From contig JASBSB010000007.1 of the NCBI GenBank assembly GCA_030149205.1, positions 548,473 to 612,472 of the forward strand: DNA of 64,000 nt, read 5' to 3'. Source of the DNA: Candidatus Heimdallarchaeota archaeon (GTDB taxonomy: Archaea; Asgardarchaeota; Heimdallarchaeia; Heimdallarchaeales; Kariarchaeaceae). Below the pieces are notes generated by a model. That model did not search any database. It was not told the DNA's origin and saw only the letters and a list, made by a program, of their open reading frames with translations. The translations under genes were made by a program, and so were the position numbers. The number at the start of each line of letters is the position of its first letter. The stretch's first letter is position 1. Positions 24,726-33,738 of the stretch are shown here, piece after piece.

Positions 24726-25142
24726 ATGAACAAAAAAGTTCTTTTTATCTGTACGCATAATTCCGCCCGTTCTCAGATGGCTGAGGGATTAACCAATCAT
24801 TTCTTTCCAGATGTTCAAGCCTTTAGTGCAGGAACAGAAAAGACTCGTGTGAAACCTGAAGCAATAGAGGCACTGAAAGAAATTGATATAGATATCAGCC
24901 ACCACACCTCCAAAACGACCGAGGCCTTTCTTAATGATCAATTTGATCTGGTTGTCACTGTCTGTGATAGCGCAAAGGAATCTTGCCCTTTCTTCCCAAA
25001 TGCAAAATTGCGGGCTCATGCTGGGTTTAAAGATCCCTCTGATATTACAGATCCGAAGGAGAGACTTTTAGCATTTAAAAGAACCCGAGATGAGATTTTA
25101 GACTGGTTACATGATAACCTTATGGATTTACTCGAGGACTGA
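24726..25142 (+). CDS. arsC: Low-molecular-weight phosphatase-type arsenate reductase
   Basis: VLFICTHNSARSQMAEG P-loop; VVTVCDSAKESCPFFP; FKDPSD. Confidence 0.88.
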   Translation: MNKKVLFICTHNSARSQMAEGLTNHFFPDVQAFSAGTEKTRVKPEAIEALKEIDIDISHHTSKTTEAFLNDQFDLVVTVCDSAKESCPFFPNAKLRAHAGFKDPSDITDPKERLLAFKRTRDEILDWLHDNLMDLLED

Positions 25143-26118
25143 AAAACTGAAGAAATACATCCCACGTTAACTTACTAGTCATTAGATCATATTTTGCATC
25201 AAAATTTGGGGATGTACACCCTGGGGAAATAACTCTAACAAATTGAAATCTGATAGTATGGTTGTTTTTCTCCGCATTCAACATCATTTTATAATCATTG
25301 ATTGAATCCCCAAACATCACAAGCTGTCTGATTTCTGGATTCTGGTAAATAAGTTGGTTTAAGGCATAAGGATTAGGTTTAAGCAGGCTTTGTCCATTTT
25401 CAACACAATTTTCTATGAAGAATCGAGAATCTGGCAAGAATAAATCTTCAATCATATTACTCTCAAGAAATAAGTCTAAATCAACCTTGGGTCTTCCAGT
25501 TACCACAGCAAGCTTTACCATTGAAGAGAGCCTCCTCAAATCATTAAAGTCAACCAATAATTGTTCCTTCATGTACAAGGGGTCCGGGTTAAGGTGTTTC
25601 AGATAAGGTATGTTTCCATAAATTTTCTCAAACATCTCATTACCGTAATAAAACTGCTGGAAAATGTTTTCCAATAAATTTGTTGCCAAAATATCACCAT
25701 TGTTTTTGAGAAAGACCGGTGGATTAGCTTGAATTAGGGATAAGTAGCTCTCAGGTTTTGATCCAACTCCATTCAAAAATATCTGAAATTTCTTTACAAA
25801 GTCTCCTGTAAGATTTTGTTCTTTGAAATTCATCTTTTCATACTTTAATCTATCGAATCGACTGTTATTCCCAGATACAATAGAGATCATAAACAGAATA
25901 AACAATGATGCAACATCATAATCTGAATTGAATCCTTCAATCTCTTTCACCCTGCAATAATCATCGAGGTTAAAGAGTATATCTGGGATGTTGTTCCATC
26001 CTAAGACCTCTGTAAGATAAGTTTCAGCGGTCTTAATAGCAGCTACACCATAAGAATGCAATGTGCTGACTAAGGTCTCATCCACATCAAATACAAACAT
26101 GGTGTCAAAATCAGGCAA
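25120..26118 (-). CDS. HAD superfamily hydrolase
   Basis: FVFDVDETLVST motif I; VVTGRPK motif II; MFGDSINDYKMMLNAEKN motif IV. Confidence 0.85.
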   Translation of the reverse strand: MPDFDTMFVFDVDETLVSTLHSYGVAAIKTAETYLTEVLGWNNIPDILFNLDDYCRVKEIEGFNSDYDVASLFILFMISIVSGNNSRFDRLKYEKMNFKEQNLTGDFVKKFQIFLNGVGSKPESYLSLIQANPPVFLKNNGDILATNLLENIFQQFYYGNEMFEKIYGNIPYLKHLNPDPLYMKEQLLVDFNDLRRLSSMVKLAVVTGRPKVDLDLFLESNMIEDLFLPDSRFFIENCVENGQSLLKPNPYALNQLIYQNPEIRQLVMFGDSINDYKMMLNAEKNNHTIRFQFVRVISPGCTSPNFDAKYDLMTSKLTWDVFLQFFSPRVNP

Positions 26119-26218
26119 TGTTAATTTTTTAATGTAAACATCTGTTAATTAGGTTCCTATTCACTCATAACTAATCAAAAAAGATGTTCGTTCTTTGTTT
26201 GTTAGACAAGAAACAAGT

Positions 26219-26227
26219 GTTTAAATC
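26219..26227 (+). promoter_or_regulatory. Candidate TATA box of the histidine operon transcript
   Basis: GTTTAAATC about 32 nt upstream of the His-rich short ORF; archaeal spacing predicts a TSS at or next to its ATG. Confidence 0.45.
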
Positions 26228-26251
26228 TTAGTATGAGCAGAACATATTAAC

Positions 26252-26353
26252 ATGAAATGTGGCATTATCAAAGCAAGAGGAAATTTGAACAGTCGAATTC
26301 AGAATCTAATTGACCTGGTAAGCCACCATCATCATATACATCATCATTTATAA
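26252..26353 (+). CDS. Candidate his operon leader peptide: MKCGIIKARGNLNSRIQNLIDLVSHHHHIHHHL
   Basis: 33-aa ORF not in the supplied track; 7 His codons in 8 positions, about 95 bp upstream of hisIE, about 25-30 nt downstream of a TATA-like element. Confidence 0.7.
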   Translation: MKCGIIKARGNLNSRIQNLIDLVSHHHHIHHHL

Positions 26354-26409
26354 TTTAACGAACTGCATAAAAGAATCAAAAATTATTTTCTATAAAACCA
26401 ATGTTTGAT

Positions 26410-26436
26410 CTTCTCTGGCTGATAATGCCACAGAAG
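26410..26436 (+). promoter_or_regulatory. Inverted repeat/hairpin directly before hisIE
   Basis: CTTCTCTGGC-TGATAAT-GCCACAGAAG: 10-bp stem with one mismatch; followed by AAGG and the ATG at 26448. Confidence 0.65.
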
Positions 26437-26447
26437 AAGGTACCAAC

Positions 26448-27500
26448 ATGATATCGTTAGTCATAGAACAGAATCTTTACGCTTCACTAGAACCTAATAT
26501 TCGAGAGGTTCTATATATCTGCTTCCCACTCACAATTGAAAAGGGGTCTGCTTCATATCCTCTTCCGGAAGATTTCAAAGTTAGATCTGAGAAAAGCCCT
26601 GAAGATTGGATAAAAGTCGGAGCAACGGAAATTTATCTCGATAATACTCAAGAGACGAACTATGGACAATGGAAAGAGATCTACAGTATCGAAGATTTGA
26701 AAAATCTCGTCAATCACATCTCAGTCCCAACAGTAGTTGATTTTCAATCTACTAATTTTGACCCTGTGCTCCTTGAACAATCAATCAAGAATCTACCATC
26801 TTTAATCCCTGTAACAATAGTGTTTGATTATAAATCGTTAGATACTCTTTTAACCCTTATATCACTGGATCTCGATCTAGGGATACGTGTAAGAAATACT
26901 CAAAGCATTACTGAATTGTTGAGGAATTATACAAACCTTCTGAAATTTAATTCTGAGAAATTGATTCCTACTGTCACCTTAGATCAAGACTCTCGCTTTC
27001 TTATGATGGCCTACTCAAGCCGTGAATCAGTAGATCTTACAATTGACACTAGGTATGCAACTTATTTCAGTCGATCCAGATCAAGACTTTGGAAAAAGGG
27101 TGAAACCTCAGGAAACTTACAACAGATCACTAAGATTAGGATGGACTGTGATAGGGATACCTTGGTCTTCTATACCACCCCTCTTGGTCCAGCTTGTCAC
27201 AGAGGCACATACAGTTGCATTGGAGGGAAGCAGTTAAGATATAAGGATTTCTTTACAAGAGTCCAAAAGAGAATTATAAACCCAGATCCCAATTCTTATA
27301 CTCAGAGGTTGATCAAAGATCCAAAACTTCTTTCAGACAAGATAGCAGAAGAGAGTAACGAAGTAATAAATTACACAGACAAAATGAACTTAGTTTGGGA
27401 GATTGCTGACCTCACATATTTTGTATCTGTACTTATGATCAGGGAAGGTATACGGGCAAAAAACGTTTTACGTGAATTGAAATCTAGGGAGAGAAATTAG
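26448..27500 (+). CDS. hisIE: Bifunctional phosphoribosyl-AMP cyclohydrolase / phosphoribosyl-ATP pyrophosphatase with about 185-aa N-terminal extension
   Basis: YFSRSRSRLWKKGETSGN, DCDRDTL, GPACHRGTYSC (HisI); SYTQRLIKDPKLLSDKIAEESNEVI..WEIADLTYF (HisE). Confidence 0.92.
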   Translation: MISLVIEQNLYASLEPNIREVLYICFPLTIEKGSASYPLPEDFKVRSEKSPEDWIKVGATEIYLDNTQETNYGQWKEIYSIEDLKNLVNHISVPTVVDFQSTNFDPVLLEQSIKNLPSLIPVTIVFDYKSLDTLLTLISLDLDLGIRVRNTQSITELLRNYTNLLKFNSEKLIPTVTLDQDSRFLMMAYSSRESVDLTIDTRYATYFSRSRSRLWKKGETSGNLQQITKIRMDCDRDTLVFYTTPLGPACHRGTYSCIGGKQLRYKDFFTRVQKRIINPDPNSYTQRLIKDPKLLSDKIAEESNEVINYTDKMNLVWEIADLTYFVSVLMIREGIRAKNVLRELKSRERN

Positions 27501-27502
27501 CT

Positions 27503-28495
27503 ATGAATGGTAAGACAAGTTCAACAATTAAAATTGGCATTCCATCTAAAGGGAGAATGGGAGAAGAAACCATTGAGTTCCTCAAAAAATGTGGTTTGGA
27601 AGTAAAGAGAACAAGACGTAACTATTTTGCTTCTATTCCAGCCTATCCTGACATCAAGGTGGTTTTACAAAGGCAAGAAGACATTGTAAAAGGGGTCACC
27701 TCAGGTCTGCTTGAGATGGGTATCATCGGATTTGATTTATATACTGAAATTTTGAATAGTGAGGAGAAGAGACAAACAATAGTATTGTTTGACGACCTTG
27801 AGTTTGGAAAATGTGACTTAGCAATCGCAGTTCCTGAGGAATGGGAAATTTCTGATATTACAGAATTTGATCGGTCAAAGGGGTATAGAGTTGCAACAAA
27901 ATTCACTAACACAACCCAGGAATTTTTGGATACGCAAAATATCGCTTTTCAATTTGTTGAAGGTGCAGGAACACTCGAAATCTCACCAGCTTTGGGAAAT
28001 GCAGATTTCATTGTTGATTTGGTATCAACGGGCCAAACGCTCAAAGATAACAGGTTGAAACAGATTAACAACGGAAAGATACTCAGTTCACAAGCGATAT
28101 TTGTTGGAAACAGGACAATCCTGAAATCAACCCCTGAGGCTTTACACATAGCTAGCGATTTAATAGAAATATTTGCCGCAACATTAAGAGCAGAAAAATT
28201 TGTATCTGTATTTGTTAATATGAGGGGAAATAACAGGCAGGAGATAATTGATCAATTTTTTACTGTGGATGGATTAGAGGGTTTACAAGGTCCTACAGTG
28301 TCAGATGTATACACAAAGGACAACGGGGACTGGTTTGCGGTTCATCTTGTGGTGGCAAAGAGAAACTTACTCACAGCAATAAAAAACATCAGACAACTCG
28401 GAGGTTCTGGGGTTGTTGTTTCGGAGACTAATTATATCTTTGAGGAGGAACCAAAGCAGTACACTCTCCTTAAAGAACAGCTTAGGGGTGAATAA
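27503..28495 (+). CDS. hisG: ATP phosphoribosyltransferase, long form
   Basis: IGIPSKGRMGEETIEFLKKCGL; VEGAGTLEISPALGNADFIVDLVSTGQTLKDN; C-terminal regulatory domain. Confidence 0.93.
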   Translation: MNGKTSSTIKIGIPSKGRMGEETIEFLKKCGLEVKRTRRNYFASIPAYPDIKVVLQRQEDIVKGVTSGLLEMGIIGFDLYTEILNSEEKRQTIVLFDDLEFGKCDLAIAVPEEWEISDITEFDRSKGYRVATKFTNTTQEFLDTQNIAFQFVEGAGTLEISPALGNADFIVDLVSTGQTLKDNRLKQINNGKILSSQAIFVGNRTILKSTPEALHIASDLIEIFAATLRAEKFVSVFVNMRGNNRQEIIDQFFTVDGLEGLQGPTVSDVYTKDNGDWFAVHLVVAKRNLLTAIKNIRQLGGSGVVVSETNYIFEEEPKQYTLLKEQLRGE

Positions 28496-31546: not shown

Positions 31547-32149
31547 ATGATAGCAATAGTTAATACTGGCTCTGGAAATCTAAGATCAGTTCAAAAAGCA
31601 CTTGAATTATTTTATCCAGAGATTAAGATAATTGATACCCCAAAAAGCATCAGTTCAGCAGATGGGATGGTCTTGCCTGGGGTAGGTTCCTTTGGTGATG
31701 CAGTTGATACATTAAATGAAATAGATCTTTTTGAGGAAGTTAAGGAGTTGGGAAAATCCATACCGGTACTTGGAATTTGTCTGGGAATGCAGATTCTTTT
31801 TGAGCGATCTGAAGAGTCACCAGATGCTACAGGTTTAGGATTGTTAAGAGGAGAGGTTTTAAAACTTCATCCTCTCAATGATACTAATGTCCCACATACT
31901 GGTTGGAATCGTTTAATTCCACAGCAAAAGGAACAGAAGATTGAGAACCTTAAGTACGCCTATTTCAATCACTCATATTACTGCCACCCTGAGGATGAAA
32001 ATGTTATTGATTATTCTGTTATCCATGGGGGAAAATATCCCGCGATTATCCAGAAGAGAAATATCTTAGCAACACAGTTTCATCCAGAAAAGAGTAGAGA
32101 GAGTGGTGAACAGGTGTTGAAGTATTTTGTGAGGTCGGTTAGACAGTGA
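31547..32149 (+). CDS. hisH: Imidazole glycerol phosphate synthase glutaminase subunit
   Basis: NTGSGNLRSVQKAL; GICLGMQILFERSEE; FHPEKS. Confidence 0.94.
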   Translation: MIAIVNTGSGNLRSVQKALELFYPEIKIIDTPKSISSADGMVLPGVGSFGDAVDTLNEIDLFEEVKELGKSIPVLGICLGMQILFERSEESPDATGLGLLRGEVLKLHPLNDTNVPHTGWNRLIPQQKEQKIENLKYAYFNHSYYCHPEDENVIDYSVIHGGKYPAIIQKRNILATQFHPEKSRESGEQVLKYFVRSVRQ

Positions 32150-33738
32150 AGAAAATACTTGTAGCAATAGATCTCATGAACGGAGAGGTAGTCAGACTTA
32201 GCCAAGGTGAATTTTCAAATAAGACAGTCTATTCAAAGACGCCTCTAGATGTAATGAAGAAGTTTGTCTCAGAAGGGGTCGAATGGTTTCATATTGTAAA
32301 CCTTGATGGAACACAAGCAGAACCGAAAATACAACCCAATAATGGAACCAATAATGGAACCAAAACAGGAACTAATAATGAGACTGACGATGACAGTAGG
32401 TCTGCCAATTTAACCGTCATAAGACAACTGATCAAGTATGGAAAATCAGTTGGGGTCAGTATTCAAATTGGTGGAGGGGTAAGAAATTATACCCAGGTCA
32501 AAAAATACCTTGAAATTGGTGTTGACAGGGTTGTGATTGGAACCTTGGTGTTCAGTGATCCAACTGAATTTAAAAAAATATTATCCGCGTATTCGACTCA
32601 AGTAGTCGTTGCTCTTGATGTCTTGGATGGAATTGTAAGGGTTCATGGTTGGACTAAATCAACAGAGACAAGCATTGAAACTGCAATCTCTGACCTTCTT
32701 TCTCTTGGTGTATCCAACTTTCTTGTGACAGACATCAAGAAGGATGGAATGCTGTCAGGAATTAATACTGAACTTTACAGAAAAATTCAATCCCTTTTAG
32801 ACAGTTCGGAGAGTAAAAAATCAGGGAATCACATTGAGATTATTGCTTCTGGGGGTGTAAATTCTCTTGACTCAATTAAATCTGCATTAGAGGTCTGTGG
32901 ATCTGTTGTCGTAGGTAGGAGTCTATATGAGGGAACAATTAACCAAGCTCAACTTGGAAACATAATTTTGGCGTATAACAAAAGCTATCTGACAAAACGA
33001 ATCATTCCATGTCTTGATGTAAAAAATGGGAAGGTTGTCAAGGGGGTCAACTTTCTCAATCTCAAAGATATAGGTGATCCAGTCGAGATGGCAATGTACT
33101 ACAATGAAAAAGGGGCTGATGAGCTTGTGTTTTTAGATATTACTGCCACAGTTGAAGGTCGAAAAGCAACACTTTCCAAGATACGTGAGGTTGCAGAGAC
33201 TGTATTCATCCCATTCACAGTTGGTGGAGGGGTCAAGACACTTGCCGATATTCAAGATATCATTAATGCAGGAGCAGAGAAGGTCGCCATTAATTCGGGA
33301 GCGATAAGCAACCCAGAAGTTCTGACTCAGGGTGCACATAAATTTGGCTCTCAATGCATAGTCTTAGCTGTCGATGTTAAACAAAAAGGTGACACTTGGG
33401 AGGTTTACTCTCAGGCAGGAACACAACCAACAGGGCTTGATGCATTTAGATGGATTGAGAAAGCCATATCTAAGGGAGCAGGTGAAATTCTTGTCACAAG
33501 TATAGACAGAGACGGAACCAAACAGGGTTTCGATTTACAGCTGTTGTCAGAGCTACGAGCAAGATTCAAGGTACCCATTATTGCTTCTGGTGGTGCTGGT
33601 CAAGTAGAGCATTTTGCAGAGATATTTGACATTGGGATTGATGCAGGATTGGCTGCATCCATCTTTCATGAGAGAGAGATTGAGATTCATACCCTGAAAA
33701 GGCTATTGAAAAGTCGAAATGTTAGAGTAAGAATCTGA
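32146..33738 (+). CDS. hisAF: HisA-HisF fusion protein: ProFAR isomerase (about residues 1-280) + IGP synthase cyclase (about 282-530)
   Basis: Uninterrupted 530-aa [32 protein letters not shown].. then [62 protein letters not shown] start. Confidence 0.95.

What the first reader, a model, noticed from the sequence alone, without database searches (positions are those of the whole stretch)
26252..26353. His-codon-rich leader peptide (SHHHHIHHHL) directly upstream of an archaeal histidine operon
A 33-codon ORF absent from the supplied track, MKCGIIKARGNLNSRIQNLIDLVSHHHHIHHHL*, has 7 His codons in 8 consecutive positions. It lies about 95 bp before hisIE and about 32 nt downstream of a TATA-like GTTTAAATC, so it should be the first ORF on the his transcript and nearly leaderless. 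A run of His codons near the end of a short upstream ORF is the hallmark of the enterobacterial hisL attenuator (MTRVQFKHHHHHHHPD). Ribosome-mediated his attenuation is not, to my knowledge, established in archaea.
Basis: partly seen in the sequence, partly recalled or inferred. Interest (0 to 1): 0.92.

Follow-up and report, generated by a model that had tools for sequence, protein, structure and literature searches.

The report
Histidine leader peptide in Asgard archaea
A tiny gene ending in a run of histidine codons sits just in front of the histidine-making genes of this Asgard archaeon and of distantly related Asgard archaea, which points to a starvation-sensing ribosome switch of a kind well known in bacteria and for which I found no report in archaea.

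Summary
Window 26252-26353 encodes MKCGIIKARGNLNSRIQNLIDLVSHHHHIHHHL*, in the gap between divergent genes, 94 nt before hisIE of the operon hisIE-G-D-C-B-H-AF. It is the only place in the 64 kb window where 5 or more of 8 consecutive codons are His. A scan of his-operon upstream regions in 232 genomes of the phylum (Asgard archaea) found short ORFs with His-rich C-termini before ten other his operons, e.g. EHHHHMHHHC*, HFHHHQHHE*, LHHWLHHE*, AHHWHYHL*. Ten of 55 regions have at least 4 His in the last 9 codons, against a mean of 0.04 and maximum of 1 in 200 shuffle sets. No such ORF precedes 28 control genes (hisS, ilvC, trpE-like). The peptide bodies diverge; the frame and the terminal His codons persist. 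All carriers fall in one his-operon clade (support 1.0). The seven Lokiarchaeia leaders are followed by two covarying hairpins. In the window, leader codons 3-7 pair perfectly (13 nt) with the segment before the hisIE Shine-Dalgarno site, and simulated stalling on the His codons favours that pairing. Best explanation: an archaeal histidine attenuator that senses ribosome stalling. The output step (translation or transcription) is inferred, not shown.

The parts
26219..26227 (+). TATA-like box (GTTTAAATC); implies a transcript that starts only a few nt before the leader ATG
   Evidence: Sequence. Distance fits an archaeal TATA box; start site not mapped. No bacterial-type promoter on the plus strand and no hairpin plus U-tract terminator found.
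26252..26353 (+). his leader ORF, 33 codons, MKCGIIKARGNLNSRIQNLIDLVSHHHHIHHHL*
   Evidence: counterparts before ten other his operons.
26324..26347 (+). His-codon run HHHHIHHH (7 of 8 codons), the proposed stall site
   Evidence: same layout EHHHHMHHHC* in L081.
26258..26270 (+). RNA segment A (TGTGGCATTATCA), leader codons 3-7
   Evidence: Exact 13-nt reverse complement of segment D; a perfect stem of 13 or more arises in 4 of 2000 shuffles.
26315..26327 (+). RNA segment B (..AAGCCACC..), just 5' of the His run, alternative partner of A; covered by a ribosome stalled on the His codons
   Evidence: Predicted A:B hairpin.
26400..26419 (+). RNA segment C (AATGTTTGATCTTCTCTGGC), 5' arm of a hairpin that pairs with the hisIE SD and start codon
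   Evidence: Predicted fold of 26346-26450 (z-score -1.5 against shuffles) and of 26398-26450.
26420..26432 (+). RNA segment D (TGATAATGCCACA), partner of A; otherwise loop and 3' arm of the C hairpin
   Evidence: P(A:D) 0.94-0.95 with a ribosome on the first five His codons, 0.33-0.65 free, 0 when A is covered.
26432..26440 (+). SD-like AGAAGAAGG of hisIE
   Evidence: Sequence; distance to ATG inferred as SD.
26448..27500 (+). hisIE (350 aa; HisI+HisE at residues about 156-349, plus an N-terminal extension of about 155 aa without a known domain)
27503..28495 (+). hisG
   Evidence: TIGR00070
28496..29836 (+). hisD
   Evidence: TIGR00069
29836..30942 (+). hisC
   Evidence: TIGR01141
30939..31535 (+). 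hisB
31547..32149 (+). hisH
   Evidence: TIGR01855
32146..33738 (+). hisA-hisF fused in one 530-aa frame
   Evidence: TIGR00007 and TIGR00735

Best explanation
The ORF is the leader peptide of an attenuator-like switch on the his operon. SHOWN by sequence: a short ORF with a terminal His-codon run precedes the first his gene here and in other Asgard his operons, far beyond chance, and the transcripts can form alternative RNA pairings. INFERRED: when charged tRNA-His is scarce, the ribosome translating the leader stalls on the His codons. In the window, a ribosome there covers segment B, so segment A (leader codons 3-7) cannot pair with B. A instead pairs over 13 bp with segment D and thereby breaks the C hairpin that would hold the hisIE SD and AUG, so hisIE is translated and the operon is on. 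When His is plentiful the ribosome runs to the stop codon, A pairs with B behind it or is covered by following ribosomes, and the C hairpin closes the start site. In Lokiarchaeia the same sensing element (His codons at the ORF end) is joined to a different read-out: one hairpin directly after the leader stop codon and a second directly before the SD. An effect on termination (archaeal FttA-type) in place of, or on top of, translation initiation is not excluded.
For: Conservation: ten other leaders, an enrichment of 10 of 55 regions against a shuffled mean of 0.04, and one clade with support 1.0. Specificity: no His-rich tails before 28 hisS, ilvC and trpE-like genes, and several other His runs found in the phylum scan are antisense to Asp-rich coding regions. 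Drift of the peptide body with the His tail and frame kept. Stop-to-ATG spacing of 83-87 nt in all seven Lokiarchaeia leaders. Covariation in the two hairpins: 92.7% of cells paired, 5 pairs changed on both sides, best register at slide 0. Stall simulation in the window and the 13-nt stem with 4 of 2000 shuffles.
Against: No expression, ribosome-profiling or start-site data. The predicted change in SD accessibility in the window is modest and depends on how much 3' sequence is folded (0.63 to 0.81 with 26249-26455, but 0.30 to 0.39 with 26249-26480 and no change with 26249-26520). The A:B/A:D switch is seen in the window only, with no close relative to test covariation. The window's local C hairpin is only mildly more stable than shuffles (z -1.5). 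Six Lokiarchaeia operons of the same order lack the leader, so it is dispensable. In Lokiarchaeia no clear on/off switch of the SD emerged from constrained folds.
Confidence: 0.82

Rival explanations
1. Same sensor, but the read-out is transcription: stalled or released ribosomes change termination (FttA/aCPSF1 or U-tract) before the his genes, as in bacterial hisL.
For: Polarity and FttA link translation to termination in archaea (PMC12548453). L081 has by eye a CTGATTTTC..GAAAATCAG hairpin followed by TGATTTTTTTT between leader and hisC.
Against: No terminator-like hairpin with U tract in the window, and none evident after the first Lokiarchaeia hairpin. The scan tool did not flag the L081 hairpin (its loop is longer than the limit).
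Confidence: 0.3
2. The leader works by termination-reinitiation: ribosomes that finish the leader reach the hisIE start, and the hairpins bring stop and start codons together.
For: In Lokiarchaeia the stop-to-ATG gap is 83-87 nt and the two conserved hairpins take up most of it.
Against: Coupling is reported to fade above about 30-40 nt in archaea and bacteria (PMC12548453). It would predict lower his expression under His starvation, the opposite of what is useful, and does not explain a His run.
Confidence: 0.08
3. The ORF encodes a functional His-rich micropeptide, for example a metal binder, made with the his operon.
For: His clusters can bind Ni, Co or Zn (general knowledge); HisD is a zinc enzyme.
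Against: The peptide body is not conserved, spacing of His residues varies (HHWLHH, HHHLH, NPHHHKQH), and every copy ends within a few residues of the His run, as expected for stalling near a downstream RNA element.
Confidence: 0.04
4. Chance: a CAT/ATC-rich repeat that happens to lie before the his genes.
For: CAT repeats occur elsewhere in these AT-rich genomes.
Against. Expected number of such regions 0.04, observed 10.
Confidence: 0.01

Closest known systems
hisL attenuator of enterobacteria (E. coli and Salmonella)
   Same: Short ORF first on the his transcript with a run of 7 His codons near its end, followed by RNA that can fold in alternative ways.
   Different: Host is an archaeon; no intrinsic terminator in the window; first gene is hisIE; no sequence relation detected; sensing and output not tested.
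Candidate His-leader attenuators of Bacillus cereus group, Eubacteriales and Erysipelotrichales (PMC9413887)
   Same: Short leader peptides with three to five His codons in a row before his operons, predicted by comparison. That paper also notes attenuators that hide the ribosome-binding site in place of a terminator.
   Different: Bacterial; with terminator and antiterminator hairpins in the reported cases.
Histidine T-box riboswitch and the HisR repressor (bacteria)
   Same: Sense His supply at his operons.
   Different: No Rfam family matches in the window's leader region at E up to 1; works without a leader peptide.

Membership tests
Ribosome-mediated amino-acid attenuator (his type) | Short ORF upstream of the first his gene, same strand, same likely transcript | tested here: met
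Ribosome-mediated amino-acid attenuator (his type) | Cluster of codons for the regulated amino acid near the end of the ORF | tested here: met
   7 of the last 9 codons
Ribosome-mediated amino-acid attenuator (his type) | Regulatory codons conserved among relatives while the rest of the peptide drifts | tested here: met
Ribosome-mediated amino-acid attenuator (his type) | Mutually exclusive RNA structures whose choice depends on ribosome position | tested here: inconclusive
   Predicted in the window but not tested by covariation there; in Lokiarchaeia the hairpins covary but the switch is not resolved
Ribosome-mediated amino-acid attenuator (his type) | Expression rises when charged tRNA-His is scarce | not testable with these tools
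   Needs expression data
Transcription attenuator of the hisL kind | Intrinsic terminator (hairpin plus U tract) between leader and first gene | tested here: not met
   None found in 26120-26700; bacterial criterion, may not apply to archaeal termination
Translation attenuator that hides the ribosome-binding site | Hairpin that holds SD and start codon of the first gene and is opened by a stalled ribosome | tested here: inconclusive
   Hairpin predicted; opening on stall seen in short folds, weak in longer ones
T-box riboswitch | Match to the Rfam T-box model | tested here: not met
   No Rfam match at E up to 1 in 26100-26600

The most novel reading that the evidence does not exclude
Asgard archaea use ribosome stalling on a histidine-codon leader peptide to switch on histidine synthesis. 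This would be the first leader-peptide amino-acid attenuator in the archaeal domain, inherited within one his-operon lineage across at least two Asgard classes and joined to at least three different RNA read-outs.
Probability: 0.75. Interest if true: 0.9.

Novelty: new variant of a known kind. Interest (0 to 1): 0.86.

Why it matters
Leader-peptide attenuation is a textbook bacterial mechanism that depends on close contact between translation and gene output. I found no archaeal example in the held literature. Its presence in Asgard archaea, the archaeal lineage nearest to eukaryotes, would show that translation and his mRNA fate are coupled there and give a natural reporter for measuring that coupling. 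It also gives concrete, testable sequences in many genomes, one of them a single-contig 6 Mb genome (G090).

Tried and rejected
Rfam search of the window's leader region: no match; the larger batch of loci was over the size limit and was not run. Trp- or branched-chain-rich leaders before trpE-like and ilvC genes of the same genomes: none, though those genes may not be first in their operons. Named relatives through HisIE in genome contigs: 80 loci, mostly bacterial and not at operon starts, none with a His-rich tail; useful mainly to name one relative as a Lokiarchaeia MAG. Covariance model of the Lokiarchaeia leader end: in 232 genomes it found only its own seven members and no false positives, so it does not extend to the window. 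Classical 1:2/2:3/3:4 scheme for the Lokiarchaeia leaders: GATGATG-like segments can pair with the His codons (CATCATC), but constrained folds gave no consistent SD switch. Similarity of the leader or hisIE region to phage or plasmid records: none.

Full report
Observation. The 33-codon ORF at 26252-26353 is present exactly as described. It is in the gap between a minus-strand HAD-family gene (25120-26118) and hisIE (26448), with 94 nt from its stop to the hisIE ATG. The His run (26324-26347) is the only place in the 64 kb window, in six frames, with at least 5 His in 8 codons, and at least 7 of 8 is expected about 8e-8 times in this gap. In the whole 3.3 Mb genome the pattern CAYx4-NNN-CAYx3 occurs twice. 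The seven downstream ORFs are a complete his set: hisIE, G, D, C, B, H and a fused hisA-hisF.

Relatives. The window belongs to a phylum of which 232 genomes are held. One relative contig (133,037 bases, G149:C112) matches in length a record titled Candidatus Lokiarchaeia archaeon, so the phylum is the Asgard archaea. The pattern scan hit a second his operon, in G090 (a single 6.0 Mb contig): a short ORF ending EHHHHMHHHC* before hisC of the order C-B-H-F-A-I-E-G-D. I then took all hisG loci of the phylum, pulled about 60 regions, mapped his genes and searched upstream of each operon. His-rich ORF ends precede hisIE in L076, L077, L078, L080, L082, L084, L085 (order IEGDCBHAF where the contig is complete, as in the window) and hisC in L081, L092, L093. 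L092 differs from L093 by a one-base indel that moves the start codon of its frame.

Chance. With a uniform rule (at least 4 His in the last 9 codons of a short ORF within 350 nt of the first gene), 10 of 55 his-operon regions qualify; 200 sets of dinucleotide shuffles give a mean of 0.04 and a maximum of 1, and random windows of the same loci give 11 of 3960. L080 has 3 of 9 and is counted as a weaker case. No other amino acid has more regions than His, and the next, Leu, is favoured by AT-rich sequence. The same search before 28 hisS, ilvC and trpE-like genes gave no His, Trp or Ile/Leu/Val cluster. Several of the other His runs in the pattern scan lie antisense to Asp-rich coding sequence.

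Evolution. In a tree of concatenated HisG, HisD, HisB and HisH all leader-bearing operons lie in one clade (support 1.0), and the window is the sister of the Lokiarchaeia hisIE-first operons (support 1.0). The two same-genus genomes carry a hisG-first operon without a His-rich leader, and six Lokiarchaeia operons (L079, L087-L091) have lost or never had it. Within Lokiarchaeia the leader frame is kept, indels are in threes, dN/dS is about 0.3-1.5, and the His codons in the last ten positions persist. That is the pattern expected if the codons, not the peptide, matter.

RNA of the Lokiarchaeia leaders. Seven leaders share a hairpin that starts right after the stop codon and a second right before a strong SD (GGGGG or GAGG), with a stop-to-ATG gap of 83-87 nt. 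Six of seven fold well below shuffles, with z -3.7 to -5.6; L080 has z -2.9. The two hairpins keep 92.7% of pairs, have 5 pairs changed on both sides, and lose pairing when slid by one column. A model of this element finds only these seven sites in 232 genomes. Upstream GATGATG-like segments can pair with the His codons in most of them (seen in folds), but I could not derive a consistent switch of the SD.

RNA of the window. Segment A (26258-26270, leader codons 3-7) is an exact 13-nt reverse complement of segment D (26420-26432) just before the hisIE SD; 4 of 2000 shuffles have so long a stem. D otherwise belongs to a hairpin (C, 26400-26419) that pairs with SD and AUG. A can also pair with B next to the His run. 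Masking a ribosome footprint on any of the first five His codons raises P(A:D) to 0.94-0.95 in every fold length tried, against 0.33-0.65 with no ribosome, 0.66-0.73 at the stop codon and 0 when A is covered. The effect on SD openness is 0.63 to 0.81 in the shortest fold and nearly nil in longer ones, so the last step is weak. No terminator-like site is present.

Mechanism. I take the His-codon run as a sensor of charged tRNA-His, read by a stalled ribosome, as likely (0.82). In the window I favour control of hisIE translation by the A:B / A:D / C:D choice. That particular scheme I hold at about 0.35, because it is a prediction for a single sequence and because queued ribosomes would also cover A. 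Control of transcription by archaeal termination is the main rival: PMC12548453 summarises FttA-based polarity. The confidences of the main explanation and of the transcription rival overlap, since they share the same sensor and differ in the output step.

Known systems. It works like the bacterial his attenuators (PMC9413887 describes His-leader attenuators in several bacterial groups and notes variants that hide the ribosome-binding site). Membership as a hisL-type transcription attenuator fails on the terminator. As a ribosome-sensing attenuator it meets every feature that sequence can test directly; the switch is inconclusive and the response untested. Searches of the held open-access library gave no archaeal leader-peptide attenuator; subscription papers are largely missing there.

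Limits. Genomes are mostly draft MAGs, no expression data exist here, and the ribosome footprint (15 nt behind and 13 nt ahead of the A-site codon start) is an assumption.

Noticed in passing
L009 (G001), L010 (G002), L083 (G005), L094 (G011), L081 (G090), L092/L093 (G096/G098), 40-180 nt before or overlapping the first his gene: A second conserved element: an SD plus ATG (absent in L093) followed by a palindrome AGGTGAAYRYGTTCAC (mini-ORF M..GE(Y/R)VH..), only in the hisG-first and hisC-first branch of the same his clade, not in the window. It could be an RNA hairpin or a regulator site.
   Followed up: partly
26448-26900: HisIE carries an N-terminal extension of about 155 aa without a Pfam match; Lokiarchaeia homologues have extensions of different length.
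   Followed up: partly
32146-33738: hisA and hisF are fused in a single 530-aa frame; in several relatives hisA is instead fused to hisIE.
   Followed up: no
L079, L087-L091: Lokiarchaeia his operons of the same gene order with no leader and a short upstream region, i.e. natural leader-less controls.
   Followed up: partly
L076, L077, L084 upstream of the leader: A conserved stretch AGTTAACTTTTTTAG..TACGGTGCATA precedes the leader, perhaps promoter or regulator site.
   Followed up: no
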